Shown: piece after piece, positions 591 through 45,161 of the stretch
Position numbering within the stretch: position 1 is the stretch's first letter
Layout: every line of letters begins with the position of its first letter
Assembly (NCBI GenBank): GCA_938040325.1
Contig: CALHXW010000222.1
Coordinates: 1-45,796 of the forward strand
Length of the DNA stretch: 45,796 nucleotides
Direction of reading: 5' to 3'
Source of the DNA: an uncultured bacterium
Lineage (GTDB): Bacteria > Myxococcota_A > UBA9042 > PHBI01
Program-made: the position numbers and the translations under genes
Notes under the pieces: model-generated
Told to the model about the DNA's origin: nothing
The model's database searches: none
Seen by the model: only the letters and a program-made list of their open reading frames with translations

Positions 591-1436
591 CTACGTTGGC
601 GGCGCGTCCTTTGCTGGAAAGCGCCAGCGGGTCGCCAGCAGATAGGGCACAGCCACAGCGGCGGTGTGGAGCCACAGCCACGGCGTCGACGGCTGGTCGA
701 GGGTGGCTAGCAGCACGAAGAAGAGGCTAGACGCGATGATGCGCGGGCCGGCGGTCGCCCAGGGCATCGCATGGCCCGCGGCCCTGCTCCGGGCGACCCC
801 GATGGCGATGGCAACGCACAGGGCGGCGAACCCGTACACGGCTTCGGGCGGCCACGGGTCGCGCAGCACCCACCGGAGTGCTCCCCACCATGTCGCGATC
901 AGCAGCGCATGTGTCACGCCGATGGTGAAGACCGGAAGCAAGAGTAGCCGCTGCCTTAGCGGCCGCTCGCCGTCGAGCCACCAGCTCGCGGCGACACCGA
1001 AGAAGCCCCAGCCGATGATGCCAATGAGAGGCACATCGAAGTAGTTTGGCAGCGTCCACGACCAGAGCCCAGCGGACACCGCTATGATCTCCATCAATGA
1101 CGCGTCGATGAAGACCAGCAGACCGACGGCCGCGGCGCGCTGGCGACGCGTGAGGCCCGGCCAGAGGACCATCACGACCTCGCGCGCGCTCAGCACCACC
1201 ATCGGCCATATCAGAGGGATGAGGAGGGGCACATCGCCGAGCTTCAGCCACCAGCCGTCTGCGTAGGCATAGGCACGGTACGCGCTGATACAGCTTTGCT
1301 CGCCAACCCAAGCGGTGAGCGCCACACACACGAGCGTGAGTGCGCGCTCGCGGCGGCCCTCACGTGGCGCCAACACCACAGCATAGGCGAGCGTGAGGAC
1401 GCCCACGCATGCAAGCTGAAACGCCGTGAAGCTCAC
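591..1436 (-). CDS. CruF-like carotenoid biosynthesis membrane protein (PF04240-type)
   Basis: A 281-residue polytopic membrane protein with about seven hydrophobic segments. The central stretch has an acidic residue in helix 4 (IDASLMEIIAVSAG), then GLWSW and DVPLIGIIGWGFFG. This agrees with the carotenoid 1,2-hydratase/CruF (DUF422) family, which hydrates acyclic carotenoid ends in the membrane. The family match comes from pattern memory, not a search, so the substrate is open. Its GTG start (1436) overlaps the TGA of the upstream gene as GTGA, so translation is probably coupled. It is the last gene of a minus-strand operon with two secreted peptidase-like genes, an odd neighbourhood for carotenoid metabolism. 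Family A repeat A1 lies just downstream. Confidence 0.62.
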   Translation of the reverse strand: MSFTAFQLACVGVLTLAYAVVLAPREGRRERALTLVCVALTAWVGEQSCISAYRAYAYADGWWLKLGDVPLLIPLIWPMVVLSAREVVMVLWPGLTRRQRAAAVGLLVFIDASLMEIIAVSAGLWSWTLPNYFDVPLIGIIGWGFFGVAASWWLDGERPLRQRLLLLPVFTIGVTHALLIATWWGALRWVLRDPWPPEAVYGFAALCVAIAIGVARSRAAGHAMPWATAGPRIIASSLFFVLLATLDQPSTPWLWLHTAAVAVPYLLATRWRFPAKDAPPT

Positions 1437-5838: not shown

Positions 5839-5999
5839 GGAGCCCTGGCGCGCGCGACGTTCCGCCGGCGGAGGCAACAACGTCAGCACATGACTTCGCG
5901 TGGTTCGAGGCGCTGACCATAGTGCGATGCAGCATGCGCTGCGAACAAAAACCGGCCTGCGTCCTTGTTTGGCCACCAAGTTGTTCGGAGCTGCCCGAG

Positions 6000-8252
6000 C
6001 TACTCCGTCGCAGCTGCTCGTAACGCCTTGCGATCGTGGGCAACATCGGGAACGAGCGCGATGACCGGCACGATCTCGATGCGTGGCTCGAGCGGCATTC
6101 CCGGGCGCTTGTGGATCGACACGGAGAAGTCTCCCATGAAGACGGGGCGGGGCGATCGTGACTGCACCACGTCGGGGACGCCGGCGAGGTCCCAGATGTT
6201 GAGCAAGAGCCTGAGCTCTTCGGCACCGCGTGCCTTGTCGCCCATGAGGTTGGACGCATAGCTCAGCCACTTCAGGGTCAAAAAGCCGATTCCAGGGGCA
6301 GGCTTCATGGTGAGGCCGGCGTCGAGGAGCCCGCGAGCGCCAGCGGGATCACCGGTCATCACGGCCGCCTGCCCGGCGGCTAGCTTGGCAAACGAGCTCT
6401 TCGGTTCGAGTCGCCGGACCTGCTTGAGCAAGAGCGGCGTCACGTCGTGGTTGCCGGTCGACACCAGCAGTGCGCCGAGCGTCGCAACCAGCGCGAGCGA
6501 GCGCTTTCGTCCGGCCGAGCTGGACTCGTCGAACGCCACGCGAGGCTTTGGCAGTCGGTTGATGGCCTCTTCGGCGCTCAGCCGTCCCTTGCCGGCGTCT
6601 TTGGCGTCGAGCGGCGCGCCGTCGAGGGTCTGGGACGCGAGCTGAGCGGTCACGGTCGCGAGGTGCCAGGTCCCGAGATCCATCCCTGGCGGCATCTTGT
6701 CGGGATCGGCGAGCGCGCCGCGCGCTTTGAACTCGCGGCGGAGCGTCTTGTAGGTCGCGAGCGCTCGCCGAACGAGCTTCTTGTCGCCGCGCTGGACGCC
6801 ATAGCCGGCGCGAACTTGTGCGGTCATAAAGCGCAGCGCCAGGCGGTCATCGCCCTTGAGACGCTTGGCGGACGTGTCGGCCGTCTTGAGGGCTTGGTCA
6901 GGTCGATCGACGCCTACATAAGCGGCAAGCGCGAGCCGTGCCATGGTCAGCGAGCGCGGAAACGCCTTGAGACCAGCAGCGACCTCACCCTTCACCGTGT
7001 TGAGCACGTCGCTCGTCGGGGTCTTCTCGCCGCGTTCGTTGGCCGCTTTCCACTGGCCAATCGCGAGCAGAATTCGCGCCGCGTGGCCAACCAGCGCGCC
7101 CCGCTCTGGTTCGCGCTCCTTGAGTGCGGCGAGGTCGCTGTCGAGATCGCGAGCAGCGATGGCTGCGAGCTGTGGGTCCGCGGTCACGCGCGCGTGGACG
7201 ATCGCTGCAATGCGGGCGTCGCGAAGCTGGGCATCGAGGCCGCCGGGCGCGCCGCTCTGCTCGGCTTCGTCGACCAGCGACAAGAGGCTGCCGAAGCGTT
7301 GCTGAGACAGGTAGAGATCGGCGGCGGACTGCTGGACCTGCAGATCTGTGGGGTGGTCGGCGACGAGCTGCTTGGCGAGAAAGAGTGCAGGTCCCAGGCG
7401 TCCCAGCCGCTGATAGCTCGCAAGCTGCGCGGCAGCGACCGCCGGTGGAGCGCCGTCTCGCCCGGCCTCGTAGGCGCGCGTGGCCTGCTCGTCCTTGTAG
7501 CGCTGCTGGGCGAGGTCGAGCCTTGCCGCGAGCCCCGGTGCACCGTCGGTGACCCGCTCGTAGAGCCGGCGAGCGGCCTCGGGCTTGTCGACCTTGAGCA
7601 AGGTGCGGTGGAGGTTGATGGCGTGGTGCGGGGCTTCGCTGATGACGAACGCCTGCTGAAACGCCGCCGCTGCATCCGCAGGTCGCTTCTCGCGGTCGAG
7701 CCAGTGTCCCCGCTGATTGTGCGCGATCGCGAGGTCGCGATCGCGGTCGAGCACCGCGTGGAGGGTGTGGGGGAACCAGTCTTTGCCCAGCTGGCGCATC
7801 GCACGGAGCGATGCAAGCAGGTCGACGTAGCTGTCGCGGGCGTTGCTCGGCACCTGCTCGAGCAGCTGCGAGAGCGACTCACGCATCGTGGGCTGGGTGT
7901 CGAACGTGTAGCCGACGGCATGGACCATAAACGACGTTGTCATCCGAGCGATGTCGAGCCCGCGGCTCGTCTCCCCACGGTCGACGACCACCTGCACGGT
8001 CGTCGCGAGCAGGACCAGGTCATGGAGGTCGGCGGGGGTGTCGAGACCGAGGTCTTCGTCGCCGAGGAGCAACCGGTTCGTGAGCCTGCGAATCTGGCCC
8101 AGCAGCTGCGTGGTCGGCGCGGTCGAGAGATCGCTCTCTGCCAAGATCCGCGCGGCGAGCGGCAGGCGGTCGCTCACCTTCGGCGGTCCGGCCCACGCGC
8201 TACTCGCAGCCGAGAGGAGGCACACTGTCAGCAACATCACCGTTGTACGCAT
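6000..8252 (-). CDS. Secreted TPR-like helical-repeat protein
   Basis: 750 residues with a clear signal peptide (MRTTVMLLTVCLLSAASSAWA, cleavage after AWA). The rest is almost wholly alpha-helical with degenerate TPR-like pairs, for example NQRGHWLDREKRPADAAAAF and AARRLYERVTDGAPGLAARL, then further helices to residue about 690. The last 60 residues are beta-rich. TPR proteins usually scaffold protein contacts, here in the periplasm or at the surface. GAGG lies 4 nt before the ATG. The next gene upstream ends 83 bp away. No partner can be named from sequence. Confidence 0.75.
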   Translation of the reverse strand: MRTTVMLLTVCLLSAASSAWAGPPKVSDRLPLAARILAESDLSTAPTTQLLGQIRRLTNRLLLGDEDLGLDTPADLHDLVLLATTVQVVVDRGETSRGLDIARMTTSFMVHAVGYTFDTQPTMRESLSQLLEQVPSNARDSYVDLLASLRAMRQLGKDWFPHTLHAVLDRDRDLAIAHNQRGHWLDREKRPADAAAAFQQAFVISEAPHHAINLHRTLLKVDKPEAARRLYERVTDGAPGLAARLDLAQQRYKDEQATRAYEAGRDGAPPAVAAAQLASYQRLGRLGPALFLAKQLVADHPTDLQVQQSAADLYLSQQRFGSLLSLVDEAEQSGAPGGLDAQLRDARIAAIVHARVTADPQLAAIAARDLDSDLAALKEREPERGALVGHAARILLAIGQWKAANERGEKTPTSDVLNTVKGEVAAGLKAFPRSLTMARLALAAYVGVDRPDQALKTADTSAKRLKGDDRLALRFMTAQVRAGYGVQRGDKKLVRRALATYKTLRREFKARGALADPDKMPPGMDLGTWHLATVTAQLASQTLDGAPLDAKDAGKGRLSAEEAINRLPKPRVAFDESSSAGRKRSLALVATLGALLVSTGNHDVTPLLLKQVRRLEPKSSFAKLAAGQAAVMTGDPAGARGLLDAGLTMKPAPGIGFLTLKWLSYASNLMGDKARGAEELRLLLNIWDLAGVPDVVQSRSPRPVFMGDFSVSIHKRPGMPLEPRIEIVPVIALVPDVAHDRKALRAAATE

Positions 8253-8335
8253 GAAGCCTCATCGTGGGGAGAGCGCCTGTCCTACCCGAGGACGGCGGAT
8301 GGTCCAGTCGGGTACACGCACCCGTCGCTGGCACG

Positions 8336-9442
8336 TCAGTCGTCTGAACCCGGCTTGGTCGTCGGCGATTCCTTGACCGCTGTCACCGTGAGCGTCCCGT
8401 CGCTGCCGCGCTCGATATCGATGCCCTCGCCCGACGGCCAGCGGAGTGCACCGGCCACGGGCTCGACGGGCTCGAGGAGATACGCCTGCAGGACCCGGTA
8501 CAGCGCGTCCTCGTCAACCTCAGGCGCTGCCATCTTTGCTGCAGCCGGATCGCGCCGGAAGCGGCGTAGCCACGCCAGAAAGTGAGCGGGCTCGCGCGGC
8601 GGCGAGGCGCGGACCTCGGCAGCAAAGGCTTGAAACGCAGGCAAGTCGGCCTGCGTGGCGAGGATGTTGTCGCCCGTCGCCATGCGCTGGGCAATCACCG
8701 CCGGGGCCTCCACGGAGCGACGAAGCTCTCCAAGCATGTTCTGGGCAGCCTCCGCGTCGCCTTTCTGGAGCAGGATCCGTGCCGCGTAGACCCGCACCCA
8801 AGGATTGTCGCGATTGACGAGGAAGACGCGCTCGAGGCTCCTGATGCCATCCTCCCAAGCCCCGCCTTCTTCGCTCGACAGTGCATCTCCGATGTCGCCG
8901 ATCACCGGCTCCAAGAAGATCTCGTCGGTTGCCTCCGACCAGGCTTCGTGGGCGATCGAGACACCGCCCTTGCCCGCGTCGAAGACGCCGACGATCCGCG
9001 GTGGCGCCAGCTTCGGGCGCATAAAGCGCAGATACCACCGGTGGCCGTCGACCACCGCTGAGCACTCGGTCGCATAGCAGCGGAACCCGCTTGGAAGCGC
9101 TGCGAGGCGGGTCGTGAGCGCCTCGCCTTGAATGCGCGAGGCTGGATGCTTCGCGTCTGCCCACACCACACCATGGGGGTGCGCATGAGCTGCCGGGTCG
9201 CTGAGCAGCTTCTCAAGGCTTGGCCCGACGCTATCCGGTGGCGCGAGGTCAGGTGTCCACGGTGGGGTCGCTGGTCTCTGAGTGACGGCGGCGTCTGGGC
9301 GCGGGGCCTCAGCGCGGGTGTCGAGTGCCTGCGCTCGTGGCGCTACGTCGGGTGTCTCGGGCGTCGCCGGCGGGCGGGCGCAGGCTGACACAACGAGCCA
9401 CGCAAAGACGGCGGCGCATGATCCACAGCGCTGAGTGAGCAC
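8336..9442 (-). CDS. Lipoprotein with Pro/Ala/Thr-rich linker and helical C-terminal half
   Basis: 368 residues. The GTG start lies 3 bp after the stop of the upstream gene, suggesting coupling. A lipobox ending VVSAC (about residue 21) predicts lipid attachment, followed by a Pro/Ala/Asp linker to about residue 70. The middle is mixed alpha/beta; residues about 190-290 contain TPR-like helices (AARILLQKGDAEAAQNMLGE). No enzyme motif is visible. With the TPR-like protein downstream (83 bp), it may form an envelope pair; that is inference only. Confidence 0.68.
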   Translation of the reverse strand: MLTQRCGSCAAVFAWLVVSACARPPATPETPDVAPRAQALDTRAEAPRPDAAVTQRPATPPWTPDLAPPDSVGPSLEKLLSDPAAHAHPHGVVWADAKHPASRIQGEALTTRLAALPSGFRCYATECSAVVDGHRWYLRFMRPKLAPPRIVGVFDAGKGGVSIAHEAWSEATDEIFLEPVIGDIGDALSSEEGGAWEDGIRSLERVFLVNRDNPWVRVYAARILLQKGDAEAAQNMLGELRRSVEAPAVIAQRMATGDNILATQADLPAFQAFAAEVRASPPREPAHFLAWLRRFRRDPAAAKMAAPEVDEDALYRVLQAYLLEPVEPVAGALRWPSGEGIDIERGSDGTLTVTAVKESPTTKPGSDD

Positions 9443-9445
9443 CGG

Positions 9446-10165
9446 CTACAGAGAGACCTTGGCCATGACCGGCAGGTGGTCGCTGCCCATGAAGGGAAGC
9501 GGCATCGCCGGCGCCACGACCTCGATCTCCTTGGAGACGTAGATGTGGTCGATAGCGAACTCGGGGTCGTCGGCCGGGTAGGTCGGCATCGGGACGTCAC
9601 CCGCAGCGTTGGTCAGGAAGGGCGAGAGCTGCCGCAGCGCCTCGTCGTCCACATCGGCGTTGAGGTCGCCGAGCAGCAGCAGCGGCGACGCTTGCGTCTG
9701 GGCGTGTCGGAGCAGCGCCGGAACCTGCGCCGCACGATCGATCGGGTTGACCGACAGGTGCGTCACCAAGACGCTCACCGGCCCCTTGGGGGTCACGACC
9801 GTCGCCGAGAGGATGCAACGCTGCTCGTCCTTGCGCTTGGGCAAGCGATGGCGCGTCCAGGGCCCCATGGGGAACCGCGACAGCAGCGCGACGCCGTATC
9901 CGGGCTTCTCTTCGGCGGTCGGGGCGGGCTTGATCTCGACGGGGTCGGTGCCCTTACGAACACCCAGAGCGGAGGCGAAGCGGAAGTGTCCGAGCCCGGA
10001 CAAGCGCGACAGCTCTTGGGTGTGTCGGCCGGGAACGCCCTCGATCCAGTCGTTTCCGACCTCTTGGACGGCGACAACGTCAGCCTCGCCGATGATACCC
10101 GCGACCGTCTCTAAGTCACTCTCGAGACCTAGTTTGACGTTGTAGGTCATCACCGAGAACTCCAT
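9446..10165 (-). CDS. Endonuclease/exonuclease/phosphatase (EEP) family protein
   Basis: 239 residues covering a complete EEP fold without a signal peptide. Motifs in order: VMTYNVKLG, VVAVQEVGND (metal-binding Glu), GVALLSRFP, VTHLSVN, LLLLGDLNAD (Asp/Asn pair), AIDHIYVS, and SDHLPVMAKV (catalytic Asp-His near the C-terminus). Members of this superfamily are Mg-dependent phosphodiesterases acting on nucleic acids, phospholipids or inositol phosphates; the substrate is not set by sequence alone. GGAGG precedes the ATG by 5 nt. The lipoprotein gene downstream starts 3 bp after its stop. Confidence 0.9.
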   Translation of the reverse strand: MEFSVMTYNVKLGLESDLETVAGIIGEADVVAVQEVGNDWIEGVPGRHTQELSRLSGLGHFRFASALGVRKGTDPVEIKPAPTAEEKPGYGVALLSRFPMGPWTRHRLPKRKDEQRCILSATVVTPKGPVSVLVTHLSVNPIDRAAQVPALLRHAQTQASPLLLLGDLNADVDDEALRQLSPFLTNAAGDVPMPTYPADDPEFAIDHIYVSKEIEVVAPAMPLPFMGSDHLPVMAKVSL

Positions 10166-10216
10166 TGCGCCTCCACATGCTTTGGCAAAGAAGACTGTTG
10201 TACTCGGTTAGCAGTC

Positions 10217-10246
10217 CGCCGACAACCGCCGTCCGCGTTGTCGGCG
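10217..10246. repeat. Perfect inverted repeat upstream of the EEP gene
   Basis: CGCCGACAAC (10217-10226) and GTTGTCGGCG (10237-10246) are perfect reverse complements around a 10-nt GC-rich loop. It lies about 50 bp before the EEP start in a 398-bp gene-free stretch (10166-10563). That stretch otherwise holds only a weak family A piece near 10446-10475 and no convincing gene. The hairpin could act in the leader of the EEP transcript or as a terminator. Confidence 0.6.
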
Positions 10247-10445
10247 TGAGTCGTCGGTGTGGGCTGACGGCGTCCCGGTCACCAAGCGCTCGGCGACCGG
10301 GGTTGTGACCGTCTTCGCCGGCCGACTTCGTCCGATCCCAGCGTCTTGTGCGCCGGTCACGGTTGTCGATACGCGTCGTCCTCAATCCTCTGCGGCCAGC
10401 GGCGTCAACTCGCGCCAACCGATCAAACCCCTGCCGCCGACGACT

Positions 10446-10475
10446 GTCCTAAATCAAGCGCTCGTTTCTGACTCG
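10446..10475. repeat. Possible degenerate family A repeat fragment (A4)
   Basis: The segment CCTAAATCAAGCGCTCGTTT resembles the ACCCAAATCAAGCGCTGTTTT core of copy A1 (474-494). The match is short and gapped, so it may be a remnant or chance. It lies between the 3' end of hemH and the EEP gene. Confidence 0.35.
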
Positions 10476-10563
10476 CGTGAGAGCCGGCGGCGTGACACGT
10501 CGTCGGCGCGGGCGATACCAGCATGGCCCTGCTCGCGCGGATGGCCGAGATCGCGTGGAGCGC

Positions 10564-11601
10564 TTAGCCGCGCCCTTGCAGCGACTGACGCGCCAGGTTG
10601 GCCACCGCGTCCATCCAGCTCGGGTCGCTGTTGACGCACGGCACCTGCAAGAGGTCGTCGCCGCCAGCCTCGACGAAGTCTTCTTTGGCCCGGATCCCGA
10701 TCTCTTCGAGGGTCTCGAGGCAGTCGGCCACAAAGGACGGGGTGAGCACCGCCAGCCGCTTCACGCCGCGCTTAGCGTAGCGAATCAGCAGCTCGTCGGT
10801 GTAGGGCTGAATCCATGGCGTGCGCCCAAGCCGGGACTGAAACCCGACCGACCAGCTCTCTGGATCGTCGAGTCCGAGGGCTGCGGCTGCAGCGCGAGCG
10901 GTCGCGTACGACTGGGCCCGGTAGCAGCTTCGGTTGGCGTCGACGATCGCATCGCAGCAGTTGGCCCGCGCGAGGCAGTGGGCCTGGCTGAAGTCCGTGG
11001 CCTGGACCTGGCGCTCAGGCAGCCCGTGAAAGCTGAACATGACGTGGTCAGGCTTGAACGCGGCGAGCGGCTCTCGCGCGACGTCGGCAACGGCCTTGAT
11101 GAAGCCGGGGTCCTCGTAGAAGTCGGGCACGACCGAGAGCGCCGGGACCACGGTCTTCTTGCTGGCGAGCTCGAACACGCGCTGGAGCGTCGAGCCTGTC
11201 GAGGCGGAAGCGTACTGCGGGTAGAGGGGCAAGACGACGATGCGGTCGGCGCCCGCAGCCTGGAGCTCGTCGAGGGCGTCGCTCACCTTGGGGCGCTGGT
11301 AGCGCATGCCAGCGGCGACGACCCACTCGGGTCCGAGTCGCTCGCGCACGCCGTCGGCCAGGTCATGGAGGTTGGTCAGCAGCGGGGAGCCACGATCCGA
11401 CCAGATCTCGGCGTAGGCCGCTGCGCTCTTCTTCGGGCGGAAGGGCAGGATGACGCCGTAGAGGAGCGCGTTGCGCCCGGCAGCAGGGATGTCGAGCACC
11501 CGAGGATCACTGAGGAACTCGCGCAGGTAGCGACGCACCGCCGGCGTCGTGGGAGCGTCGGGTGTTCCTAGATTGACCAGCAAGAGGCCGTTGCGCTTCA
11601 C
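10564..11601 (-). CDS. hemH: Ferrochelatase
   Basis: Inserts iron into protoporphyrin to make heme. 345 residues, a normal length. Diagnostic stretches are LLLVNLGTPDAP near the N-terminus, LPLYPQYASASTGS, MFSFHGLPERQ with the metal-site His, and VGFQSRLGRTPWIQPYTDE. An internal segment, AHCLARANCCDAIV followed by NRSCYRAQ, carries four Cys placed to bind a [2Fe-2S] cluster, as described for a class of ferrochelatases with internal rather than C-terminal ligands. The start is GTG at 11601: GGAGG lies 8 nt upstream, while the ATG 15 nt earlier lacks a site. It stands alone, with no other heme gene nearby. Confidence 0.97.
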   Translation of the reverse strand: MKRNGLLLVNLGTPDAPTTPAVRRYLREFLSDPRVLDIPAAGRNALLYGVILPFRPKKSAAAYAEIWSDRGSPLLTNLHDLADGVRERLGPEWVVAAGMRYQRPKVSDALDELQAAGADRIVVLPLYPQYASASTGSTLQRVFELASKKTVVPALSVVPDFYEDPGFIKAVADVAREPLAAFKPDHVMFSFHGLPERQVQATDFSQAHCLARANCCDAIVDANRSCYRAQSYATARAAAAALGLDDPESWSVGFQSRLGRTPWIQPYTDELLIRYAKRGVKRLAVLTPSFVADCLETLEEIGIRAKEDFVEAGGDDLLQVPCVNSDPSWMDAVANLARQSLQGRG

Positions 11602-11644
11602 CTTGTCTCCCTCCATCTGTCGATCCGCCCGTCAACGCTGTCCA

Positions 11645-13309
11645 TCAGGCTCGGCCACCGTCATTACGCCGCTGCGGCTCACGCGGCAAGCGGATCGTAA
11701 AGGATGTCCCCTTGCCGCTCTGGACGGGCGAGACCGCGTCGATGGAACCACCGTGCTCCAGCACAATCTCACGAGTGAGCGCGAGACCGAGCCCAGTGCC
11801 GTACGACTTGCCGGTCACAAAGGGGTCAAAGAGCCGCTCGCGGACCTCGTCTGGGATGCCTGGCCCGTTGTCGACGACCTCGATGGTCACGCCCTCGGGG
11901 CTGGGTGCCAGCCGGATCGCCAAGTGGCGCGGCTTGGGAACGGTCGCCAGGGCTTCGATCCCATTGCGTGCGACGTTGATGATGGCCTGGCGTAGCTGGT
12001 CGGCGTCTGCACGGACCGGCGGCGGACCGCCTTCCAGGCTGGACGCCACCCCCGACAGCTCAAGCTCGATGCCCGCGTCGTGCACCTCGCGCTTGATGAA
12101 CTCGGCGAAGTCGGAGAGCAGCGCGCCGACGTCGACCTGCACCCGGTTCGGCTTCGGCAAGCGCGCGAAGTGAAGGTAGCCGTCGGTGATCGAGCGCAGG
12201 CGCTGGACCTCGCTCATGATGGCCTTGAGCGAGTCGCGAACCTCGACAGGAGCGTCCGACAGCTCGGTCAGCTCTTCTTCAATGAACTCCGCGTTGAGGC
12301 TGATCGAGGAGAGCGGATTGCGTACCTCGTGGGTGATCTGTGCCGAGAGCTTGCCGATGGTGGCGAGGCGCTCAGTCCGGAGCAGCTCGTCGCGGCTGGC
12401 AGCAAGCTCGGCGTCGCGTGACTGAAGCGACGCGGCCATGCGGTTGAACTCGGCGCCGAGCTGCTGGATCTCGTCACGGCCGGCCGCGGCGCCACCTATG
12501 TCGACCCGCTCGTCGTAGTGACCTGCGCCGATCCGCTTGGCGCCAGCCGTCAGGCGGCTGATGGGTCGCAAGGTCCACAGCGAGATAAAGAGCATCAAGA
12601 GCGACAGGAGCAGAGCCCCGGTGGCGACGATGACGACGGCGAGCGTGGTGGAGCGTTCACGCGCCTCCGCGCGACCATCCACCGCTGTGATCTGCTGGGC
12701 GATCGTCTGGGCCACCGGTTGCAGCGTCACCTGGATGCGACGCAAGACCATGGCCAGCGCGCGCGCCTCCTGCGACTCCGCCGTGAGGCTGTCCTCAGTG
12801 AGGAGCTTGTTGGCGCGCCGGAGCAGCTGGTCGTAGAGGTCGGCGCTAGGTAGAGGATCGGCCAGGCTGACGAGGTCCTTTGGGGCTACGCCGGCCACTG
12901 CGTCGGCTAGCACGCGGGACTCGGCGAACTCGACGAGCTGGCGCCTCACCTCGACGAACGCCGCTCGCTCGTCTTCATGCAGCAGCGGCGTATCGGCGAC
13001 GTTGTCGAGCCGCGCCACGATCGCTTCAATGCTTGTCGGACCGACGAAGGGCCGGGTCTTTGGCATCATGCGACGGAGCAAGGGCTGGTCAGTCACGTTG
13101 AAGCGCCGCACCATCCCTTCGACCGTCTTGAGCTGACGCATCAGCCCGTCGAGCTGGTCATGCATCGGAATCACTTCGCGCCACAGCAGCGTGGCTGCGC
13201 GTCGCTGAGAGCTCATCTCGTAGAGCGTGAACGCGCAGGTCGCGCCGAACGCGATGATGACAACCGCGAACCCCAGAAAGATTCGCGTCGAGACAGAGAG
13301 TCGAAGCAT
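11645..13309 (-). CDS. Membrane sensor histidine kinase (HAMP-HisKA-HATPase)
   Basis: 554 residues from ATG 13309. The first transmembrane helix (IFLGFAVVIIAFGATCAFTL) is followed by a roughly 200-residue helical periplasmic sensor, a second helix (VIVATGALLLSLLMLFISLW) and HAMP (LRPISRLTAGAKRIGAG). A coiled coil leads to the H-box ITHEVRNPLSSISLNAEF, an N-box (NVARNGIEAL), G1 (VVDNGPGIP), F-box and G2 (YGTGLGLALT). All catalytic boxes look intact. The nearest neighbours are hemH downstream and an Rrf2 regulator divergently upstream; no response regulator is adjacent, so this is an orphan kinase. The open frame extends 44 codons upstream, but that part is not kinase-like. Confidence 0.93.
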   Translation of the reverse strand: MLRLSVSTRIFLGFAVVIIAFGATCAFTLYEMSSQRRAATLLWREVIPMHDQLDGLMRQLKTVEGMVRRFNVTDQPLLRRMMPKTRPFVGPTSIEAIVARLDNVADTPLLHEDERAAFVEVRRQLVEFAESRVLADAVAGVAPKDLVSLADPLPSADLYDQLLRRANKLLTEDSLTAESQEARALAMVLRRIQVTLQPVAQTIAQQITAVDGRAEARERSTTLAVVIVATGALLLSLLMLFISLWTLRPISRLTAGAKRIGAGHYDERVDIGGAAAGRDEIQQLGAEFNRMAASLQSRDAELAASRDELLRTERLATIGKLSAQITHEVRNPLSSISLNAEFIEEELTELSDAPVEVRDSLKAIMSEVQRLRSITDGYLHFARLPKPNRVQVDVGALLSDFAEFIKREVHDAGIELELSGVASSLEGGPPPVRADADQLRQAIINVARNGIEALATVPKPRHLAIRLAPSPEGVTIEVVDNGPGIPDEVRERLFDPFVTGKSYGTGLGLALTREIVLEHGGSIDAVSPVQSGKGTSFTIRLPREPQRRNDGGRA

Positions 13310-39185: not shown

Positions 39186-39680
39186 ATGGGCAAAGATGTG
39201 ACATCAGGTTCCGGGGACTCACCCGATCTTCCGGCCACCCGTGCGCCCCGCTCCAGTGGCGCTCGCGGCGTTGGTCGTCGCGGCTTTATCGGAGCACTTG
39301 GGGCCGCGTCAGGACTCTTGGGAGTCGGCGCGCTCACCGCCACCCGGCGATCGCGGCGGCGAGCCACCGCCGGCTTTGAGCAGCGCGAGGCTGCGCCCGA
39401 CTTGCCGCTTGCGCTGCGGGTCGTCGCCGATCTCGCCGATGACACCACCGCGCAGGTGCGCTTGCTGGTCGACACGCCGGATGGCGAAGTGGTCGTCGAC
39501 GGCGGCACGCTGCGCTTCCGCGGTGGCCAGGCCGACGGTCCGGTCGTCTTGCGCTACCCGTTCGAGACGCGGGTTGCCGGCGAGTACACCTACCGAGCCC
39601 GCGTCGAGGTCGCGGGTGCCGAAGTCGCCACCAGCGACGCGGTGAGCTACCGGGTTCGTCCGATCGTGTGGTTCTCATGA
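39186..39680 (+). CDS. Tat-signal protein with an Ig-like domain
   Basis: 164 residues. GVGRRGFIGALGAASGLLGVG is a twin-arginine signal or anchor with an RRGFIG motif. An Arg-rich patch (TRRSRRRATAG) follows it. The mature part (about 75-164) is all-beta: LPLALRVVADLADD, QVRLLVDTPDGEVVVDG, RYPFETRVAGEYTYRARVEV, consistent with one Ig-like domain. Tat export suggests folding or a cofactor before export. It is the first gene of the three-gene operon; its TGA overlaps the next ATG (ATGA). Confidence 0.78.
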   Translation: MGKDVTSGSGDSPDLPATRAPRSSGARGVGRRGFIGALGAASGLLGVGALTATRRSRRRATAGFEQREAAPDLPLALRVVADLADDTTAQVRLLVDTPDGEVVVDGGTLRFRGGQADGPVVLRYPFETRVAGEYTYRARVEVAGAEVATSDAVSYRVRPIVWFS

Positions 39681-41470
39681 TGCGGTTGCTGGCCATCGCG
39701 CTCACGCTGCTCATGGCAAGCGCAGGTCTCGAGGACGCGACCGCAGCAACGGGGTTCCCGCAGGCCAAGATCAACCACATCGACGTCAGTGAAGCACCTA
39801 AGATCAAGGTCTACTTCTCGCTGCTCGGATCGAGTCTCAAGCCAGCGACGCTTGCCCAGGTCAACAAGGTCAAGATCTACCATAAGGATAAGGGCGAGTC
39901 GGCCGAGTTCCTGATGGGCGTCGCCGACGATGAGCCGATCTTTCCTGACGACATGGATGACTCGGAAAAGGCCGACAAGTCCGAGAACCCGCCTGAGCTC
40001 GCTGCAGCGATCGATCAGGAAGAAGGCGCGGCCGTCGTCGTTGTCGTGCCAGGCCACGGCGGCGAGGAATACAAGGGCGAGCTCGGCAACCGGAACCGCA
40101 ACGGCGCGGCGATGTTCTTTAAGAAGATGGGCAAGACCCACAACATGAACGTCGTCTTTTACAACGACTTCGTGTGGAGCTTCGTCAAAGCGCAAAACCG
40201 CGAGAACGAGCTCGCCAAGTACGACCTCTACAAAGAAAAGTGCGAAAAATGGGCCGACCTGCAGCTGCCGATGTACGGCGAGCCTCCGGCGGAGGACGCG
40301 GCTAGCGACCCTGATGAGGTGTTGTGTGGGCTGACGTCGGAGTACAGCTCGCTGGGCGACTTCGTGAAGAAGAAGGTCCACGAGGGATTTTGGCCGCAGC
40401 TCTTTCGGCTCAACCCGGTGCTCTGCGGCCAGCCCGAGAACGACCCGAAGTTCATGTCGATCAAAGTGCCCAAGTCCGAGCGCGATCGAGAAAAGAACCC
40501 GTACGCTGACCACGACGGGTCGTCAGCGTTCGATGTCGCGCTCAAGATGCTGGTGAAAGAGGGCAAGCCGCACCAGCCCAAGATCATGATCCTGACCGGC
40601 GACGGCGCTGACGGCTACGTCCTCGCCGACGAAGACTGCGACATCGTCTTTCGCAAGGAGTGCGAGTCGGGCGGCGGCAGCATCGGTGGCGGTGAGGAGG
40701 GTGAGCCGAAGCTGACCCGTAAGGAGCGTCGGGCCCGCCGAACGGGTCTTGCTAGCTGCATGAAAGCCAAGCGTCAGCAGCGCATCAACAAGAAGCAGGC
40801 CGAGTTCGCGTCGCGACTCAACAGCTGGATCTCGCTGGCGAAGACGGCCAACGTGCGCATCTACTCGGTCGTTCACCCGAACGCTACGCCAGAGCAGAGC
40901 ACGCGTCTCCAGCTGCTCGCGTGGCGCACCGGCGGCACGGCGCGCGTCGCGGATGACCCCAACGAGGTCGTCGACCACTACGACACGCTCATCGAAGAGC
41001 TCAACAGTCAGTTCGTGGTCACCTTCAACGACGAGGACGCCGTTGGTGGCGCGCCACGGACCTACATCGTCCAGGCCTTTGCACCTCAGGATGACTACAA
41101 GACCGAGCCCTACGAAGTCTTCATCCCGGCGGTGAAGGTCAAGTCCACGGTCGACGAGCTACGCGAGCTCGGCACGGAAAAGCTGGGACCGGCCGGTTTC
41201 ATGGCCGCCGCTGCGGGCGTTGGGCTGATCTTGCTGCTCATCTTGTTCAAGCTGGGCAAGAAGGTCTTTGGAGGCGGTGGTGCTAAGGCACTCAAGAAGG
41301 CGAAGGCTGGAGCGAAGGGGGCAAAGGGCGCCAAGGACATGAAGGGCATGAGCAAGCATGCCAAGAAGGCGGCCAAGGCCAAGGACAAGGCCAAGAAGGC
41401 TGCGATCAAGAAGAAGGCGGCGCTCGTGAAGGCCAAGGCGAAGGCGAAAGCCAAAGCGAAGAAGGGATAG
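39677..41470 (+). CDS. Degenerate VWA-domain membrane protein with Lys/Ala-rich cytoplasmic tail
   Basis: 597 residues from ATG 39677. The signal peptide is MMRLLAIALTLLMASAG. Residues about 110-470 follow the VWA order: strand 1 AAVVVVVPGHGGEEYKG, VVFYNDFVWSF, DGSSAFDVALKML, KIMILTGDGADGY, VRIYSVVHPN and QLLAWRTGGTARVADDPNEV with a final strand QFVVTFND. Strand 1 should hold DxSxS, but here it reads PGHGG, so the metal site is lost. A transmembrane helix (FMAAAAGVGLILLLILFKLG) follows at about 505-525. The final 70 residues are almost only Lys, Ala and Gly with KAKAKAKAK tracts like a histone-H1 tail and would face the cytoplasm. Confidence 0.8.
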   Translation: MMRLLAIALTLLMASAGLEDATAATGFPQAKINHIDVSEAPKIKVYFSLLGSSLKPATLAQVNKVKIYHKDKGESAEFLMGVADDEPIFPDDMDDSEKADKSENPPELAAAIDQEEGAAVVVVVPGHGGEEYKGELGNRNRNGAAMFFKKMGKTHNMNVVFYNDFVWSFVKAQNRENELAKYDLYKEKCEKWADLQLPMYGEPPAEDAASDPDEVLCGLTSEYSSLGDFVKKKVHEGFWPQLFRLNPVLCGQPENDPKFMSIKVPKSERDREKNPYADHDGSSAFDVALKMLVKEGKPHQPKIMILTGDGADGYVLADEDCDIVFRKECESGGGSIGGGEEGEPKLTRKERRARRTGLASCMKAKRQQRINKKQAEFASRLNSWISLAKTANVRIYSVVHPNATPEQSTRLQLLAWRTGGTARVADDPNEVVDHYDTLIEELNSQFVVTFNDEDAVGGAPRTYIVQAFAPQDDYKTEPYEVFIPAVKVKSTVDELRELGTEKLGPAGFMAAAAGVGLILLLILFKLGKKVFGGGGAKALKKAKAGAKGAKGAKDMKGMSKHAKKAAKAKDKAKKAAIKKKAALVKAKAKAKAKAKKG

Positions 41471-41473
41471 CCG

Positions 41474-43783
41474 GTGGGCAACGAGATCATCATCGACGGT
41501 GAGCGCTACGAAGTCTCCGACAAAGTCACCATCATCACCTACGAAGATCCTGGCGGCATGAGCTTCAAGAAGAAGAAGCGAAAAGCGCTCGCGAAGACCG
41601 GCTCGCCGCTGATGGCGTGGCGCAAGAAGAAGGGCAAAGGAAAGCTCAAGACCCTCGAGAAGGTCAAAGAGCACGTCAACCAGGTCATTCTTCACGCGGA
41701 TCTGACGCGGGACTCCAAGAAGTGCTTCGACGTGTTGGTGGCGCGTGGCCTGTCGACCCACTTCCTCATCGACTGGGACGGCGTCATCTACCAAGGCATG
41801 GACGTCATGAAGAAGGCGTTTCACGCCGGCGACTTCAACGACCTCTCCATCGGGATCGACCTCAACAACCTCCTGCCCAACCTGGTGAAGAAGCCCGGCG
41901 CACCGATGTATAATCGGAAGCATCCGCGCTACCAGGAGATGATGAGCAAGGAGTTTCGGCGTCCGAAGAGCGGGCGCATGCGCATCAACAAAGGCCGACC
42001 CTTGAGGTCGTATGGCTACACGGACGCGCAGTACACAGCCCTGGTGGAGCTTCTGAAGACGCTCACCAAGTACCTGCCCGCCATCAAGAAAGAGGCGCCT
42101 TTCGACGCCACTGGCGAGATCGTCAAGAACGTGCTCGACGACGAGAGCTTCAGTGGCTTCATCGGCCACTGGCACATCTCGACCCAGCGGTGGGATCCGG
42201 GGCCAGGCTTCGACTGGCAGCGGGTCTATCACGCGCTCCACAGCGAGCATAACTCGTTCCCCTTCGAGATCGTTGAAGGGCGTAACATTCGGGACTTGTT
42301 GTCGAAAGATAAGGTCACCGAGTACGCCAAGATGTACTACGACAACAACGAGTCCAACGAGTCAGGCGGCTACTACCCGATCGGGCTGAACCAGACGTGG
42401 CATGGCGGCATCCACTTGCACGGCCACTCGAGCACCAAGATCCGCGCGATGTTCGACGGGCAGCTGGTGGCGGCTCACTTCGGCGACCACACCACCAAGC
42501 TTGGCTCCAACAACTTCATCCTGCTGCGCCACCGGGTGAAGATCCCGGCCAAACAGAAGGGCGTCGACCCCAAGTACTTCACGTTCTACAGCCTCTACAT
42601 GCACCTCGAGTCGCAAGACATCGACAAGGCTACCGTCTCAAGTCCGAAGTGGATCAAGGACCTCTACCGCTTCAAAGATCCCGAGGAAGAAGAGAACGAG
42701 CCGGATCTGGAAAAGAAGAAGCTCGACGACGATGAGTTTGAGGAAGACCTCGACACGCTCGAGGGTGAGAAAGCCAACAAGGAAAAGAAGGACCCTGAAG
42801 GCGAGGACTTCATCGACACGGGCCCGCGAGTGCCGTGGCTTGAGGTGGGCGACCACATCACGGGCCTCAAGCGAGGCCAGATCGCGCTCTTCGACAAAGA
42901 GCAGCCGATCTTGGTCAGCAGTGGTGACGTGCTGGGCACGATGGGTGAGTTCGGCCAGCCCGACGAGTGGAAGCGCATGCTCCACCTGGAGATCTTCGCA
43001 GACAAGGACTGGAAGGACGCGATCGACATTGGCGCGCACGGCCGCTACCTCGTGGAGCTCGACGACGACGTTGGCACGGACCTCTTCATTGAAGACAACA
43101 ACATCCTGAGCCTCTTCGAGGGACGGCGGAAGGCGTCCAAGACCTCGCTCGCTCCGCAGAAGGTTCTCGACAGTGAAGACGTCATCGACTTCTTCACCGG
43201 CGGCCAGCGGACCGAGGACGTGCGGCCTTGGCTGCGTAAGCTGGTCACGCGGCATGTCAGCGAGTGGAGCGATCGCGTCGACTGGGTGAGCGCGCTCTCG
43301 TCAGCAGAGGACTGGACCGAGCGGGTCAGCGAGTTCAAGACGGTCGTAAAGAACTCGGGGCTTGCGAGGAGCTCCATCGAGACGGTGCTGCCCTTTATCT
43401 GGCTCAACAAGCAGGTGGCTGAGCACATCGGCATCAAGGACTACAACGGCATCCTCAACTACTTCCATCCGATCCACTTTCTGATCTGGATGACGTTTCA
43501 CAGCAACCAGCGCCTCAAGGTCATCTCCAAGGGGATGTCCAAGCGCAAGCTCAAGCAGCTCAAGCGGGCCGAGACGGAGAAGGCTCGCAAGAAGCGCGAG
43601 TGCCAGCTGTTGGGAACTTGCGAGACCGACTACGAGAACGAGGGCATCGAGCGCGTCGACTTTGGTGCCGAGTACGACGTGGAGGTCGACGATGACTACG
43701 ATCCGACCGAGGAGCTCAATGACTGGCTCACCGGTTGGGATCAAGGCGAGTGGCTGCGCGAGGAAGATGACAACGAGTGGTAG
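41474..43783 (+). CDS. Amidase_2 (PGRP-like) fused to a degenerate M23 domain
   Basis: 769 residues; GTG 41474 lies 3 bp after the previous stop. Residues about 60-260 are an N-acetylmuramoyl-alanine amidase domain: VNQVILHADLT (Zn His74), AFHAGDFNDLSIGIDLNN (His117), FIGHWHISTQRWDPGPGFDW (His232, Asp241). Residues about 300-510 follow the M23 endopeptidase order: WHGGIHLHGHSSTKIRAMFD, SNNFILLRHR, YSLYMHLESQ, LVSSGDVLGTMGEFG, MLHLEIF. The HxGxD Asp is replaced by His and the HxH motif reads LHL, so this half is probably inactive. A charged acidic insert sits at about 397-450. No signal peptide is visible, so export must use another route or the protein acts after lysis. Confidence 0.85.
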   Translation: MGNEIIIDGERYEVSDKVTIITYEDPGGMSFKKKKRKALAKTGSPLMAWRKKKGKGKLKTLEKVKEHVNQVILHADLTRDSKKCFDVLVARGLSTHFLIDWDGVIYQGMDVMKKAFHAGDFNDLSIGIDLNNLLPNLVKKPGAPMYNRKHPRYQEMMSKEFRRPKSGRMRINKGRPLRSYGYTDAQYTALVELLKTLTKYLPAIKKEAPFDATGEIVKNVLDDESFSGFIGHWHISTQRWDPGPGFDWQRVYHALHSEHNSFPFEIVEGRNIRDLLSKDKVTEYAKMYYDNNESNESGGYYPIGLNQTWHGGIHLHGHSSTKIRAMFDGQLVAAHFGDHTTKLGSNNFILLRHRVKIPAKQKGVDPKYFTFYSLYMHLESQDIDKATVSSPKWIKDLYRFKDPEEEENEPDLEKKKLDDDEFEEDLDTLEGEKANKEKKDPEGEDFIDTGPRVPWLEVGDHITGLKRGQIALFDKEQPILVSSGDVLGTMGEFGQPDEWKRMLHLEIFADKDWKDAIDIGAHGRYLVELDDDVGTDLFIEDNNILSLFEGRRKASKTSLAPQKVLDSEDVIDFFTGGQRTEDVRPWLRKLVTRHVSEWSDRVDWVSALSSAEDWTERVSEFKTVVKNSGLARSSIETVLPFIWLNKQVAEHIGIKDYNGILNYFHPIHFLIWMTFHSNQRLKVISKGMSKRKLKQLKRAETEKARKKRECQLLGTCETDYENEGIERVDFGAEYDVEVDDDYDPTEELNDWLTGWDQGEWLREEDDNEW

Positions 43784-43905: not shown

Positions 43906-43921
43906 CCGCGCCGCTCCCTAC

Positions 43922-44004
43922 GGAGGAGTGGCCGAGTGGTTGAAGGCAGCGGTCTTGAAAACCGCCAGGCGCAAGTCTCGGGGGTTCGAATCCCTCCTCC
44001 TCCG
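43922..44004 (+). tRNA. tRNA-Ser(TGA)
   Basis: A full class II tRNA: acceptor GGAGGAG pairs with CTCCTCC, discriminator G, anticodon loop CTTGAAA giving anticodon TGA, a variable arm, and a GGTTCGAATCC T-arm. CCA is not encoded. It reads UCN codons. Confidence 0.97.
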
Positions 44005-44033
44005 AACTGACGCTCTCTACAAATTTGAGTCCT

Positions 44034-44126
44034 GGAGAAGTGACCGAGTGGCTGAAGGTGCTCGCCTGCTAAGCGAGTGTAGGGTTTATAGCTCTACCGA
44101 GGGTTCGAATCCCTCCTTCTCCGCCA
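44034..44126 (+). tRNA. tRNA-Ser(GCT)
   Basis: A full class II tRNA: acceptor GGAGAAG/CTTCTCC, discriminator G, loop CTGCTAA between CTCGC and GCGAG giving anticodon GCT (codons AGC/AGU), a long variable arm, and encoded CCA at 44124-44126. A strong terminator follows immediately. Confidence 0.97.
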
Positions 44127-44162
44127 AGGGTCGCCCGAGCAATCGGGCGGCCCTTTGTGTTT
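44127..44162 (+). terminator. Rho-independent terminator after tRNA-Ser(GCT)
   Basis: AAGGGTCGCCCGA and TCGGGCGGCCCTT pair with a GCAA loop, followed by TGTGTTT. This is a stable intrinsic terminator. Confidence 0.85.
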
Positions 44163-44278
44163 GAAGCCGCAGCGGCGTCGCGATCGTAGGTCGCGGCAGG
44201 TCGACGTACATCTTCGGGGCGTCTTGGACGCGGCTAGCCCCCGCCAATGCGGGACTTGCGAGTCTTTCGCGAACGCGC

Positions 44279-44307
44279 TTGACAGACCCCTAGGGCATGC
44301 CTAATGT
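44279..44307 (+). promoter_or_regulatory. Sigma70 promoter of tRNA-Arg(ACG)
   Basis: A perfect TTGACA (44279-44284), 17 nt, TAATGT (44302-44307). The tRNA starts 13 nt downstream. This is the best consensus promoter seen in the window and probably also drives tadA. Confidence 0.85.
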
Positions 44308-44319
44308 CCGCCCTCGCTT

Positions 44320-44393
44320 GCACCGGTAGCTCAGCTGGATAGAGCAACGGTCTACGGAACCGTAGGTCAGAGGTTCGAATCCTCTCCGGTGCA
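44320..44393 (+). tRNA. tRNA-Arg(ACG)
   Basis: A full tRNA: acceptor GCACCGG/CCGGTGC, discriminator A, anticodon loop CTACGGA giving anticodon ACG. In bacteria this is the substrate of TadA, which makes inosine at position 34 so it reads CGU, CGC and CGA. The tadA gene starts 45 bp downstream. CCA is not encoded. Confidence 0.97.
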
Positions 44394-44438
44394 ACCCTTA
44401 CCTTTCGGGCTCGCCCGACGCTCTTTGAGAAAAGGCTG

Positions 44439-44957
44439 ATGAGCGGATCCGACGCTGTCCTCGACGAACCAGACGCTGATGCGGGGTTCATGAAGGCAGC
44501 GCTGGCCGAGGCCCGACGCACCGCGGGGCTCGGAAACGTCCCTGTAGGAGCCGTCATCGTCGTCGACGACACGATCGTCGCGCGCGCTGGCAACCTACGA
44601 GACGTTTTGAATGACCCGACAGCGCACGCTGAGCTGCTAGCCCTCTCTGAGGCTGGTCAGAGGCTCGGTCGCTGGAGGCTCGACGACGCGACGATGTACG
44701 TCACGCTGGAACCTTGCGCTATGTGCGCGAGCGCCATCCAGCAGGCGCGTCTCAAGCGAGTCGTCTACGGCGCGCTGGAAGAAAAAACTGGCGCGGTCGA
44801 GCACGGTCCGAGGTTGCTAGACGACGCGCCCGTCGAGACGCGTCACGCGATCGAGCATGCGCCTGAGTGCGCAGCGCTGATGAGCGCGTTCTTCGAGCAA
44901 CTCCGGGAGATCCGCAAACGCGAAGCTAAACGTGGAGGGGTGTCCGAGTTGGCTTAA
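44439..44957 (+). CDS. tadA: tRNA adenosine-34 deaminase
   Basis: 172 residues, the normal length. It deaminates A34 of tRNA-Arg(ACG) to inosine. The zinc-site motifs are complete: PTAHAELLAL (His63, catalytic Glu65) and TLEPCAMCASA (Cys93, Cys96). FMKAALAEARRTAGLGNVPV GAVIV is the usual start of the fold. The substrate tRNA gene lies just upstream. The last 24 nt of this gene, including the TAA, are also the 5' acceptor and D-arm of tRNA-Ser(CGA). Several bacteria keep tadA next to tRNA-Ser and the SRP RNA gene, as here. Confidence 0.97.
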   Translation: MSGSDAVLDEPDADAGFMKAALAEARRTAGLGNVPVGAVIVVDDTIVARAGNLRDVLNDPTAHAELLALSEAGQRLGRWRLDDATMYVTLEPCAMCASAIQQARLKRVVYGALEEKTGAVEHGPRLLDDAPVETRHAIEHAPECAALMSAFFEQLREIRKREAKRGGVSELA

Positions 44958-45022
44958 GGTGCCTGATTCGAAATCAGGTGTGCGGCAACGCACCGGGGGT
45001 TCGAATCCCTCCCTCTCCGCCA
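44934..45022 (+). tRNA. tRNA-Ser(CGA)
   Basis: A full class II tRNA: acceptor GGAGGGG/CCTCTCC with one G-U pair, discriminator G, loop TTCGAAA giving anticodon CGA, a long variable arm, encoded CCA at 45020-45022. Its first 24 nt overlap the 3' end of tadA, so the tadA transcript must be cut to release it. Confidence 0.96.
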
Positions 45023-45024
45023 GT

Positions 45025-45052
45025 GTACTCGCTCGTAGCTACGAGCGAGTAC
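45025..45052. repeat. Perfect 28-bp palindrome between two tRNA-Ser genes
   Basis: Each half reads GTACTCGCTCGTAG or its exact complement, so all 28 positions are self-complementary with no loop. It begins 3 nt after the CCA of tRNA-Ser(CGA). It may be a processing or terminator hairpin, or a protein-binding site. Confidence 0.9.
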
Positions 45053-45071
45053 GCTTGTAGGACTCGCTTGT

Positions 45072-45161
45072 GGAGAGGTGACCGAGTGGTTGAAGGTGTA
45101 CGACTGGAACTCGTATGTAGGGGCAACTCTACCGAGGGTTCGAATCCCTCTCTCTCCGCCA
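45072..45161 (+). tRNA. tRNA-Ser(GGA)
   Basis: A full class II tRNA: acceptor GGAGAGG/TCTCTCC, discriminator G, anticodon stem TACGA/TCGTA with loop CTGGAAC giving anticodon GGA, a long variable arm, encoded CCA at 45159-45161. Confidence 0.96.

What the first reader, a model, noticed from the sequence alone, without database searches (positions are those of the whole stretch)
39186..43783. Candidate undescribed three-gene envelope system
Three genes are joined by an ATGA overlap and a 3-bp gap: a Tat-signal Ig-like protein, a VWA-like membrane protein with a Lys/Ala-rich tail, and a peptidoglycan amidase fused to an M23-like domain. The VWA and M23 parts both lack metal-binding residues, so their job may be binding rather than catalysis. 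I know no characterised operon with this set. The tight spacing implies one complex or pathway at the cell wall.
Basis: partly seen in the sequence, partly recalled or inferred. Interest (0 to 1): 0.8.

Follow-up and report, generated by a model that had tools for sequence, protein, structure and literature searches.

The report
Wall-cutting enzyme with its export escort
In many Myxococcota bacteria three neighbouring genes encode a predicted wall-cutting enzyme with no export signal of its own, a small protein with a likely export signal and the same kind of tail end that related weapon systems use to hold such enzymes, and a predicted membrane protein; the small protein likely carries the enzyme out of the cytoplasm, and the enzyme gene is found almost one-for-one with a syringe-like injection machine that it may serve.

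Summary
The three genes are real and recur through the class and in several other Myxococcota families. The 'degenerate M23' part of gene 3 is not a broken peptidase: with the C-terminal region it matches WHIX, a recently named two-part domain that loads wall-degrading effectors onto the C-terminal tail of T6SS spike proteins. Yet 65 of 77 genomes with gene 3 lack the T6SS sheath gene VipA. Instead gene 3 tracks one group of extracellular contractile injection systems (70 of 77 genomes; 0 of 67 with the lower-scoring group). Gene 1, down to 14% identical to the window's copy, keeps little besides an invariant twin-arginine pair and a C-terminal F-S/G-x tail. That tail also ends the gene (VgrG or PAAR in most) directly upstream of T6SS WHIX genes (14 of 21), and 2 of about 716 other genes. 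I infer that gene 1 docks gene 3's WHIX-type domain and carries the signal-less amidase through Tat; gene 2 is a single-pass VWA partner. Amidase paralogues without WHIX in the window's genome and two relatives have their own lipoprotein-like signals (5 of 5). Docking, export and a role for the injection system are predicted, not shown.

The parts
39186..39680 (+). gene 1: predicted Tat-exported Ig-like protein, 164 aa; proposed WHIX dock and export escort
Evidence: ORF; profile match before gene 2 in 34 of 38 class loci with gene 2 and 6 of 16 outside, 7 more by eye; RR invariant in 40 rows.
39276..39281 (+). twin-arginine pair R31-R32 of gene 1
   Evidence: sequence; invariant in 40 rows
39666..39677 (+). 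C-terminal tail V-W-F-S of gene 1, counterpart of the family's F-S/G-x tail
   Evidence: 35 of 41 gene 1 proteins end F[SG]x, 4 more (this one included) end F[SGC]
39677..41470 (+). gene 2: predicted signal peptide, beta strands, VWA-like fold without DxSxS, one TM helix, basic tail predicted cytosolic; 597 aa
   Evidence: AF2; Foldseek; alignment
40031..41005 (+). VWA-like part of gene 2 (about residues 119-443)
41195..41260 (+). predicted transmembrane helix of gene 2 (about residues 507-528, by eye)
   Evidence: sequence and helix 491-532 in the model
41273..41467 (+). Lys/Ala-rich tail of gene 2 (residues 533-597), near relatives only
41474..43783 (+). gene 3: amidase fused to a WHIX-type domain, no signal peptide seen, 769 aa
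41663..42241 (+). Amidase_2 domain of gene 3 (about residues 64-256)
42359..42631 (+). WHIX-type region 1 (residues 296-386)
   Evidence: hhalign to T6SS-linked WHIX-type proteins, probability 99.9, E 3.6e-37
42398..42415 (+). WHxxxH motif W309-H314
   Evidence: W 117 of 117 rows, H310 116, H314 113
42836..43498 (+). WHIX-type region 2 (about residues 455-675: LHLEIF, HVSEW, FHPIHF); the profile match itself covers the HVSEW-FHP part
   Evidence: hhalign probability 98.8, E 9.6e-17, 72 columns; for the C-terminal slice 97.7, with 10 column-shuffled controls at 4.7 or less

Best explanation
The trio encodes a predicted wall amidase without its own export signal (gene 3), a likely Tat-exported small protein whose C-terminal tail would plug into the amidase's WHIX-type domain (gene 1), and a predicted single-pass membrane protein with a VWA-like outer part (gene 2); I infer that gene 1 carries folded gene 3 out through Tat and that the amidase then likely opens the wall for a contractile injection system found in the same genomes. 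Steps. (1) Shown by sequence: gene 3 = Amidase_2 + WHIX-type two-part module; gene 1 = RR motif + F-S/G-x tail; trio conserved; gene 3 co-occurs with one eCIS group. (2) Inferred: the WHIX cavity of gene 3 caps the tail of gene 1 in the cytoplasm, as Awe1 WHIX caps the VgrG4 tail (PMC12135965). (3) Inferred: the folded pair crosses by Tat on gene 1's signal. (4) Inferred: gene 2 holds or controls the pair at the inner membrane, its C-terminal tail (basic, or FHA in other families) facing the cytoplasm. (5) Least certain: the cut serves release or firing of the injection system.
For: Both WHIX halves match proteins found downstream of VgrG/PAAR genes. The WHIX-tail docking precedent has co-precipitation and secretion data (PMC12135965 section 11). 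Tail: gene 1 35 of 41 F[SG]x plus 4 F[SGC]; the ORF within 100 bp upstream of a WHIX-type gene 14 of 21 (30 loci examined, 9 had no such ORF), ten of eleven of these 14 checked being VgrG or PAAR and one DUF4280 by Pfam; background 24 of 738 genes, 22 of them gene 1. Gene 1 rows are 14-38% identical to the window's, yet RR and the tail persist. No gene in 12 fetched eCIS stretches has the tail (0 of 176). Five amidase paralogues without WHIX in G000, G001 and G002 all start with a lipoprotein-like signal. TatC in 48 of 52 class genomes, own included. Co-occurrence: 70 of 77 gene 3 genomes have the eCIS-A marker, 70 of 73 eCIS-A genomes have gene 3, 0 of 67 eCIS-B (from 34 and 63). In G334, which has no eCIS marker or sheath match, gene 3 lies in a T6SS cluster (Hcp, gp25, TssF, TssG). 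Tat export of a partner without a signal is known (PMC10924467, start of abstract in listing).
Against: No interaction was tested: complexes could not be folded here. TatC was not found in G002, G005, G010 and G011, all with gene 3. The window's own gene 1 tail is one residue short (WFS); two of 41 gene 1 proteins lack the Phe (L161, L165); of 7 found by eye, L162 and L064 lack the F-S/G-x tail and L173 has Tyr. Seven of 21 upstream ORFs of WHIX-type genes lack the tail, VgrG-like ones among them (L146, L149, L159). No gene 1 was found in f35, f37, f58 and f59 loci, and neither gene 1 nor gene 2 next to gene 3 in L163 and L164 (f47) or L179 and L180 (f35), so gene 3 there has another partner or none. 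Gene 3 and the eCIS marker are on different contigs in all 70 genomes (best hits compared by eye), so the link is co-occurrence only, and related genomes are not independent. The eCIS-A marker profile was built from eight genomes that have gene 3. Signal-peptide neighbours of T6SS WHIX effectors act as immunity proteins, which rival 1 uses.
Confidence: 0.42

Rival explanations
1. Effector and immunity: gene 3 is a wall-degrading cargo fired by the eCIS (or T6SS), and genes 1 and 2 are periplasmic immunity or inhibitor proteins that protect the producer.
For: WHIX proteins are T6SS cargo and most of their neighbours have signal peptides and are taken to be immunity proteins (PMC12135965 section 6); gene 3 has no signal; gene 3 in G334 sits in a T6SS cluster; co-occurrence with an eCIS group.
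Against: Effector-immunity sets are typically polymorphic and patchy (general knowledge), whereas gene 3 is near-universal wherever eCIS-A occurs (70 of 73). Gene 1 carries the dock-like tail, which fits a carrier better than an inhibitor of the amidase. No eCIS-A gene seen has such a tail (0 of 176; stretches partial).
Confidence: 0.22
2. Lysis or release module: the trio frees eCIS particles by dissolving the producer's wall, gene 3 acting as an endolysin-like enzyme.
For: eCIS particles are described as released on lysis (PMC8213781, passages); amidase with lysis-type PHROG matches; co-occurrence with eCIS-A.
Against: No holin-like gene was recognised in the trio; gene 2 is a VWA protein, not a pore; the 67 genomes with the lower-scoring eCIS group do without gene 3. 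It overlaps with the best explanation, differing only in purpose.
Confidence: 0.15
3. Housekeeping wall remodelling: a Tat-escorted amidase unrelated to the injection system, the co-occurrence reflecting shared ancestry.
For: Distribution clustered by family; trio not on the eCIS contig; G005 and G192 have gene 3 without a sheath match, and G046, G051 and G297 have the marker without gene 3.
Against: Absence is concordant inside family f8: G017 lacks both while its genus mate G036 has both; G029 and G035 lack gene 3 and the eCIS marker. The split follows the eCIS group (70 of 73 against 0 of 67).
Confidence: 0.15

Closest known systems
WHIX effectors of the T6SS (Fridman et al. 2025, PMC12135965; abstract, sections 6, 11, 12 and passages read)
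   Same: WHxxxH motif, two-part domain, fused to a peptidoglycan enzyme, neighbours with signal peptides, occurrence after VgrG/PAAR in the relatives I fetched
   Different: 65 of 77 host genomes lack VipA; follows an eCIS group; the dock-like tail sits on a Tat-type protein, not on VgrG/PAAR; near-fixed, not polymorphic. The paper's Table 2 lists one AmpD-like amidase and one PGRP among N-terminal fusions
CisA of Streptomyces CIS (PMC12237407, passages read)
   Same: a single-pass membrane protein accessory to a CIS, with cytosolic and outer parts
   Different: CisA has its N-terminus inside and a substrate-binding-like outer domain, and is encoded in the CIS cluster; gene 2 has a VWA outer part, C-terminus predicted inside, and lies elsewhere
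Tat hitchhiker pairs and Tat-exported amidases (E. coli HybO-HybC, AmiA, AmiC: recalled; partner export in the start of the PMC10924467 abstract)
   Same: a Tat signal on one partner exports a folded partner without a signal; amidases use Tat
   Different: here the proposed joint is a WHIX cavity and a C-terminal tail
AmpD/AmiD amidases (2y2c, 2bh7)
   Different: no WHIX-type module (general knowledge)
M23 peptidases (PF01551)
   Same: weak profile match (18.5 bits)
   Different: below cut-off (28.7); Asp ligand is His and the first His of HxH is lost (mapping by eye)

Membership tests
WHIX domain | WHxxxH motif | tested here: met
   W309 117 of 117 rows, H310 116, H314 113
WHIX domain | two conserved regions separated by a variable stretch | tested here: met
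   both halves align to T6SS-linked WHIX-type proteins; the reference WP_005373349.1 itself was not compared
WHIX domain | fused to a peptidoglycan-targeting domain | tested here: met
   Amidase_2
T6SS WHIX effector | host genome has a T6SS | tested here: not met
   own genome (90% complete) has no VipA match; 2 of 52 class genomes have one; 12 of 77 genomes with gene 3
T6SS WHIX effector | secreted by the T6SS | not testable with these tools
   -
eCIS component | encoded in the eCIS cluster | tested here: not met
   different contigs in 70 of 70 genomes
eCIS-associated system | co-occurs with the eCIS | tested here: met
   70 of 77 and 70 of 73
Tat substrate (gene 1) | RR motif followed by a hydrophobic stretch | tested here: met
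   RR invariant in 40 rows; the generic model is below cut-off for the window's protein
Tat substrate (gene 1) | Tat machinery in the genome | tested here: met
   TatC in G000 and in 48 of 52 class genomes
M23 peptidase (gene 3) | profile above cut-off with H, D, HxH | tested here: not met
   18.5 against 28.7 bits; D is H, first His of HxH is M
VWA protein (gene 2) | VWA fold | tested here: met
VWA with MIDAS (gene 2) | DxSxS | tested here: not met
   not seen in alignment A2

The most novel reading that the evidence does not exclude
The WHIX-tail joint, known only as a way to hang wall-cutting weapons on T6SS spikes, has been rewired to the Tat translocon: a dedicated Tat escort carries the spike's F-S/G-x tail and hauls a folded, signal-less wall amidase into the periplasm, giving one group of contractile injection systems a dedicated wall opener. 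It would be the first WHIX cargo outside T6SS, the first Tat escort with a spike-type tail, and a missing envelope module of an 'extracellular' CIS.
Probability: 0.35. Interest if true: 0.88.

Novelty: new variant of a known kind. Interest (0 to 1): 0.72.

Why it matters
If right, a cargo-loading joint reported as almost exclusive to T6SS genomes also works on a protein export pathway, and one eCIS group has a dedicated, separately encoded wall module. That would bear on how eCIS particles leave or fire through a Gram-negative envelope, for which tCIS and the Streptomyces CIS show membrane-linked modes. It also gives a simple searchable rule (F-S/G-x at the C-terminus) for WHIX docks.

Tried and rejected
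Rejected: M23 peptidase reading of residues 300-510 (profile below cut-off; WHIX-type match far stronger). Rejected: Lys/Ala tail as a core feature (near relatives only). Not supported: gene 3 docking on the eCIS hub; the five complete hub C-termini seen show no F-S/G-x tail and no gene in 12 stretches does, but the spike tip may lie outside them. PADLOC gave no meaningful hit. Searching residues 555-705 alone found only proteins of this family's size range, nearly all already in hand (51 hits). The tree of the 123-aa eCIS marker (30 rows) does not make gene 3-positive systems one clade (5 label changes): most low-scoring rows (11 of 13) form a clade inside the high-scoring ones and two (G272, G363) sit elsewhere on a long branch, so eCIS-A and eCIS-B are score groups, not proven lineages. 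VIA-align rows for gene 3 cover the amidase almost alone, so the WHIX part was not matched to a solved fold. Gene 1 was not folded (two AF2 jobs only).

Dropped before counting: 4 f17 genomes (G291, G338, G367, G369) whose one search hits cover WHIX region 1 only in ORFs of 1271-1778 aa and which all have VipA. G004 is counted among the 77 though its hits are WHIX-less paralogues; without it the figures are 70 of 76. The 200-bit split between eCIS-A and eCIS-B was set after seeing the gap in scores. Fisher p values ignore relatedness. In one search at most 79 of up to 429 candidates per genome were scored, so absence of gene 1 there is not certain.
Full report
Observation. The window holds three tandem genes: gene 1 (39186-39680), gene 2 (39677-41470) and gene 3 (41474-43783), with an ATGA overlap and a 3-bp gap. 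Gene 3 carries Amidase_2 (E 6.4e-14) and only a sub-threshold M23 match; no signal peptide is seen, and the N-terminus is conserved through the family. Gene 1 and gene 2 have no Pfam match at E up to 1.

Recurrence. Gene 2 is found in 40 of 52 and gene 3 in 43 of 52 genomes of the class, own included; G004's gene 3 hits are paralogues without WHIX, which leaves 42. Neighbourhoods were fetched for 38 class genomes (40 loci) and 20 genomes outside. Gene 2 and gene 3 stand on one strand in 36 of 40 class loci and 16 of 20 outside. The four class loci that lack one of the two are the two halves of G033 and of G042, where the genes are on different contigs. In most loci the genes are adjacent, but in G044 and G048 they are 3.3-3.7 kb apart, and in L174 1.7 kb. 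Outside the class, L163, L164, L179 and L180 show no gene 2 match. A gene 1 profile match stands before gene 2 in 34 of 38 class loci with gene 2 and 6 of 16 outside. Reading the missed loci by eye adds L072, L064, L162 and four f29 loci, L170-L173. A profile search of the class finds one strong gene 1 match (E below 1e-15) in 38 genomes and none in the nine genomes without gene 3 (the positives match partly by construction, and the number of candidates scored was capped). The four gene 3 genomes without one are G003, G009 and G043, where the contig ends, and G031, which has a divergent copy.

Not a T6SS here. VipA is found in 2 of 52 class genomes, not in the window's own, and in 10 of the 34 strong gene 3 genomes outside the class, so in 12 of 77. 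Instead 42 of 52 class genomes have phage-type sheath genes over cut-off. Twelve stretches around such genes were fetched from eleven genomes; their gene order is eCIS-like, and Pfam on ten proteins of two of them gives Pvc16_N, sheath, T4 gp19 tube, CIS_tube with LysM, GPD hub and gp25. A 123-aa conserved protein of these clusters, searched in 377 phylum genomes, gives two score groups: 73 genomes at 200 bits or more (eCIS-A) and 67 at 180 or less (eCIS-B). Of 77 genomes with gene 3 (four weak f17 hits dropped) 70 have eCIS-A; of 73 with eCIS-A, 70 have gene 3; of 67 with eCIS-B, none. Exceptions: G004, G005, G045, G049, G050, G192 and G334 have gene 3 without the marker (G045 and G050 have sheath matches; G004's hits are WHIX-less paralogues); G046, G051 and G297 have the marker without gene 3. 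By sheath alone, in the class, 40 of 43 gene 3 genomes and 2 of 9 others have it. In G334, which has neither marker nor sheath match, gene 3 sits just before a small ORF and genes for Hcp, gp25, TssF and TssG, with VipA on the same contig. Gene 3 and the eCIS marker are on different contigs in all 70 genomes (compared by eye).

The tail. In the studied WHIX case the cavity is predicted to cap the C-terminal tail of VgrG4, which ends ...VSFSGR, and binding and secretion are lost when the last 14 residues are removed. In my loci the ORF within 100 bp upstream of a WHIX-type gene ends F[SG]x in 14 of 21 cases (30 loci examined, 9 had no such ORF; L144 has a second, shorter ORF there that ends FSG). 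Of these 14, eleven were checked by Pfam: seven VgrG (FSG), three PAAR (FSI, FSV) and one DUF4280 (FGF). Gene 1 ends the same way: 35 of 41 F[SG]x and 4 more F[SGC], the window's WFS among them. Rows of gene 1 are 14-38% identical to the window's; RR is invariant, F7 and P44 of the aligned window piece are near-invariant, and the tail region stands out in the consensus. Among 738 genes of the loci 24 end F[SG]x, and 22 of these are gene 1 (21 by profile, one by eye). None of 176 genes in 12 eCIS stretches does. The WHIX paper has no occurrence of 'FSG', 'twin-arginine' or 'eCIS' in its main text.

A natural contrast. The same genomes hold amidase paralogues without WHIX (40% identical in G000). 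All five found in G000, G001 and G002 start with lipoprotein-like signals (read by eye). So the form without WHIX has its own export signal, and the form with WHIX has none but has gene 1 beside it.

Gene 2. AF2 (pLDDT 86.9) and Foldseek give a VWA-type core with flanking beta strands, a C-terminal helix long enough to span the membrane and a helical basic tail. In f29, f35 and f37 the C-terminal end is an FHA domain (five of five tested). This suggests an inner-membrane partner linked to cytoplasmic control; CisA of Streptomyces is a functional parallel, not a homologue shown here.

Mechanism and weight. The joint between gene 1 and gene 3 is the best supported inference (about 0.6); Tat export of the pair about 0.5; a purpose tied to the injection system about 0.5; all together I give 0.42, as the parts support one another. 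The main rival is an effector with two immunity proteins. The near-fixed distribution and the position of the dock-like tail on gene 1 speak against it, but no experiment does. Papers: passages of PMC12237407, PMC8894136, PMC8213781 and PMC13323088 were seen by term search; a whole-word search for WHIX in the library listed three papers, two of them relevant.

Noticed in passing
L174 (G334:C526), 5761-11911: Gene 3 homologue directly before a small RR-bearing ORF and genes for Hcp, gp25, TssF and TssG: an amidase with a WHIX-type module inside a T6SS core cluster in a Myxococcota genome.
   Followed up: partly
L131, L136, L140, L143, L148, L153, L157, L160, L130, L133-L135, L138: VgrG proteins upstream of WHIX-type genes end FSG, and PAAR proteins FSI/FSV: a candidate general WHIX-dock signature.
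   Followed up: partly
L170-L172, L175, L177: Gene 2 homologues of families f29, f35 and f37 end in an FHA domain; L171 has a further small FHA gene just after gene 3.
   Followed up: partly
L129 and L147 (Archangium, Myxococcus), ORFs of 1504 and 1498 aa: Large proteins with a WHIX-type region 1; the f17 genomes with similar hits have several VipA matches.
   Followed up: no
window 43921-45161: Five tRNA genes (four Ser, one Arg) follow the trio, with a TadA-like deaminase ORF (44439-44957, by its look) among them.
   Followed up: no
G097 and G223 (f29): A second, lower-scoring copy of the 123-aa eCIS marker: two eCIS types may coexist.
   Followed up: no
L218 (G004:C1064), 1226-3373: A tandem protein with two amidase domains and no WHIX motif.
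   Followed up: no
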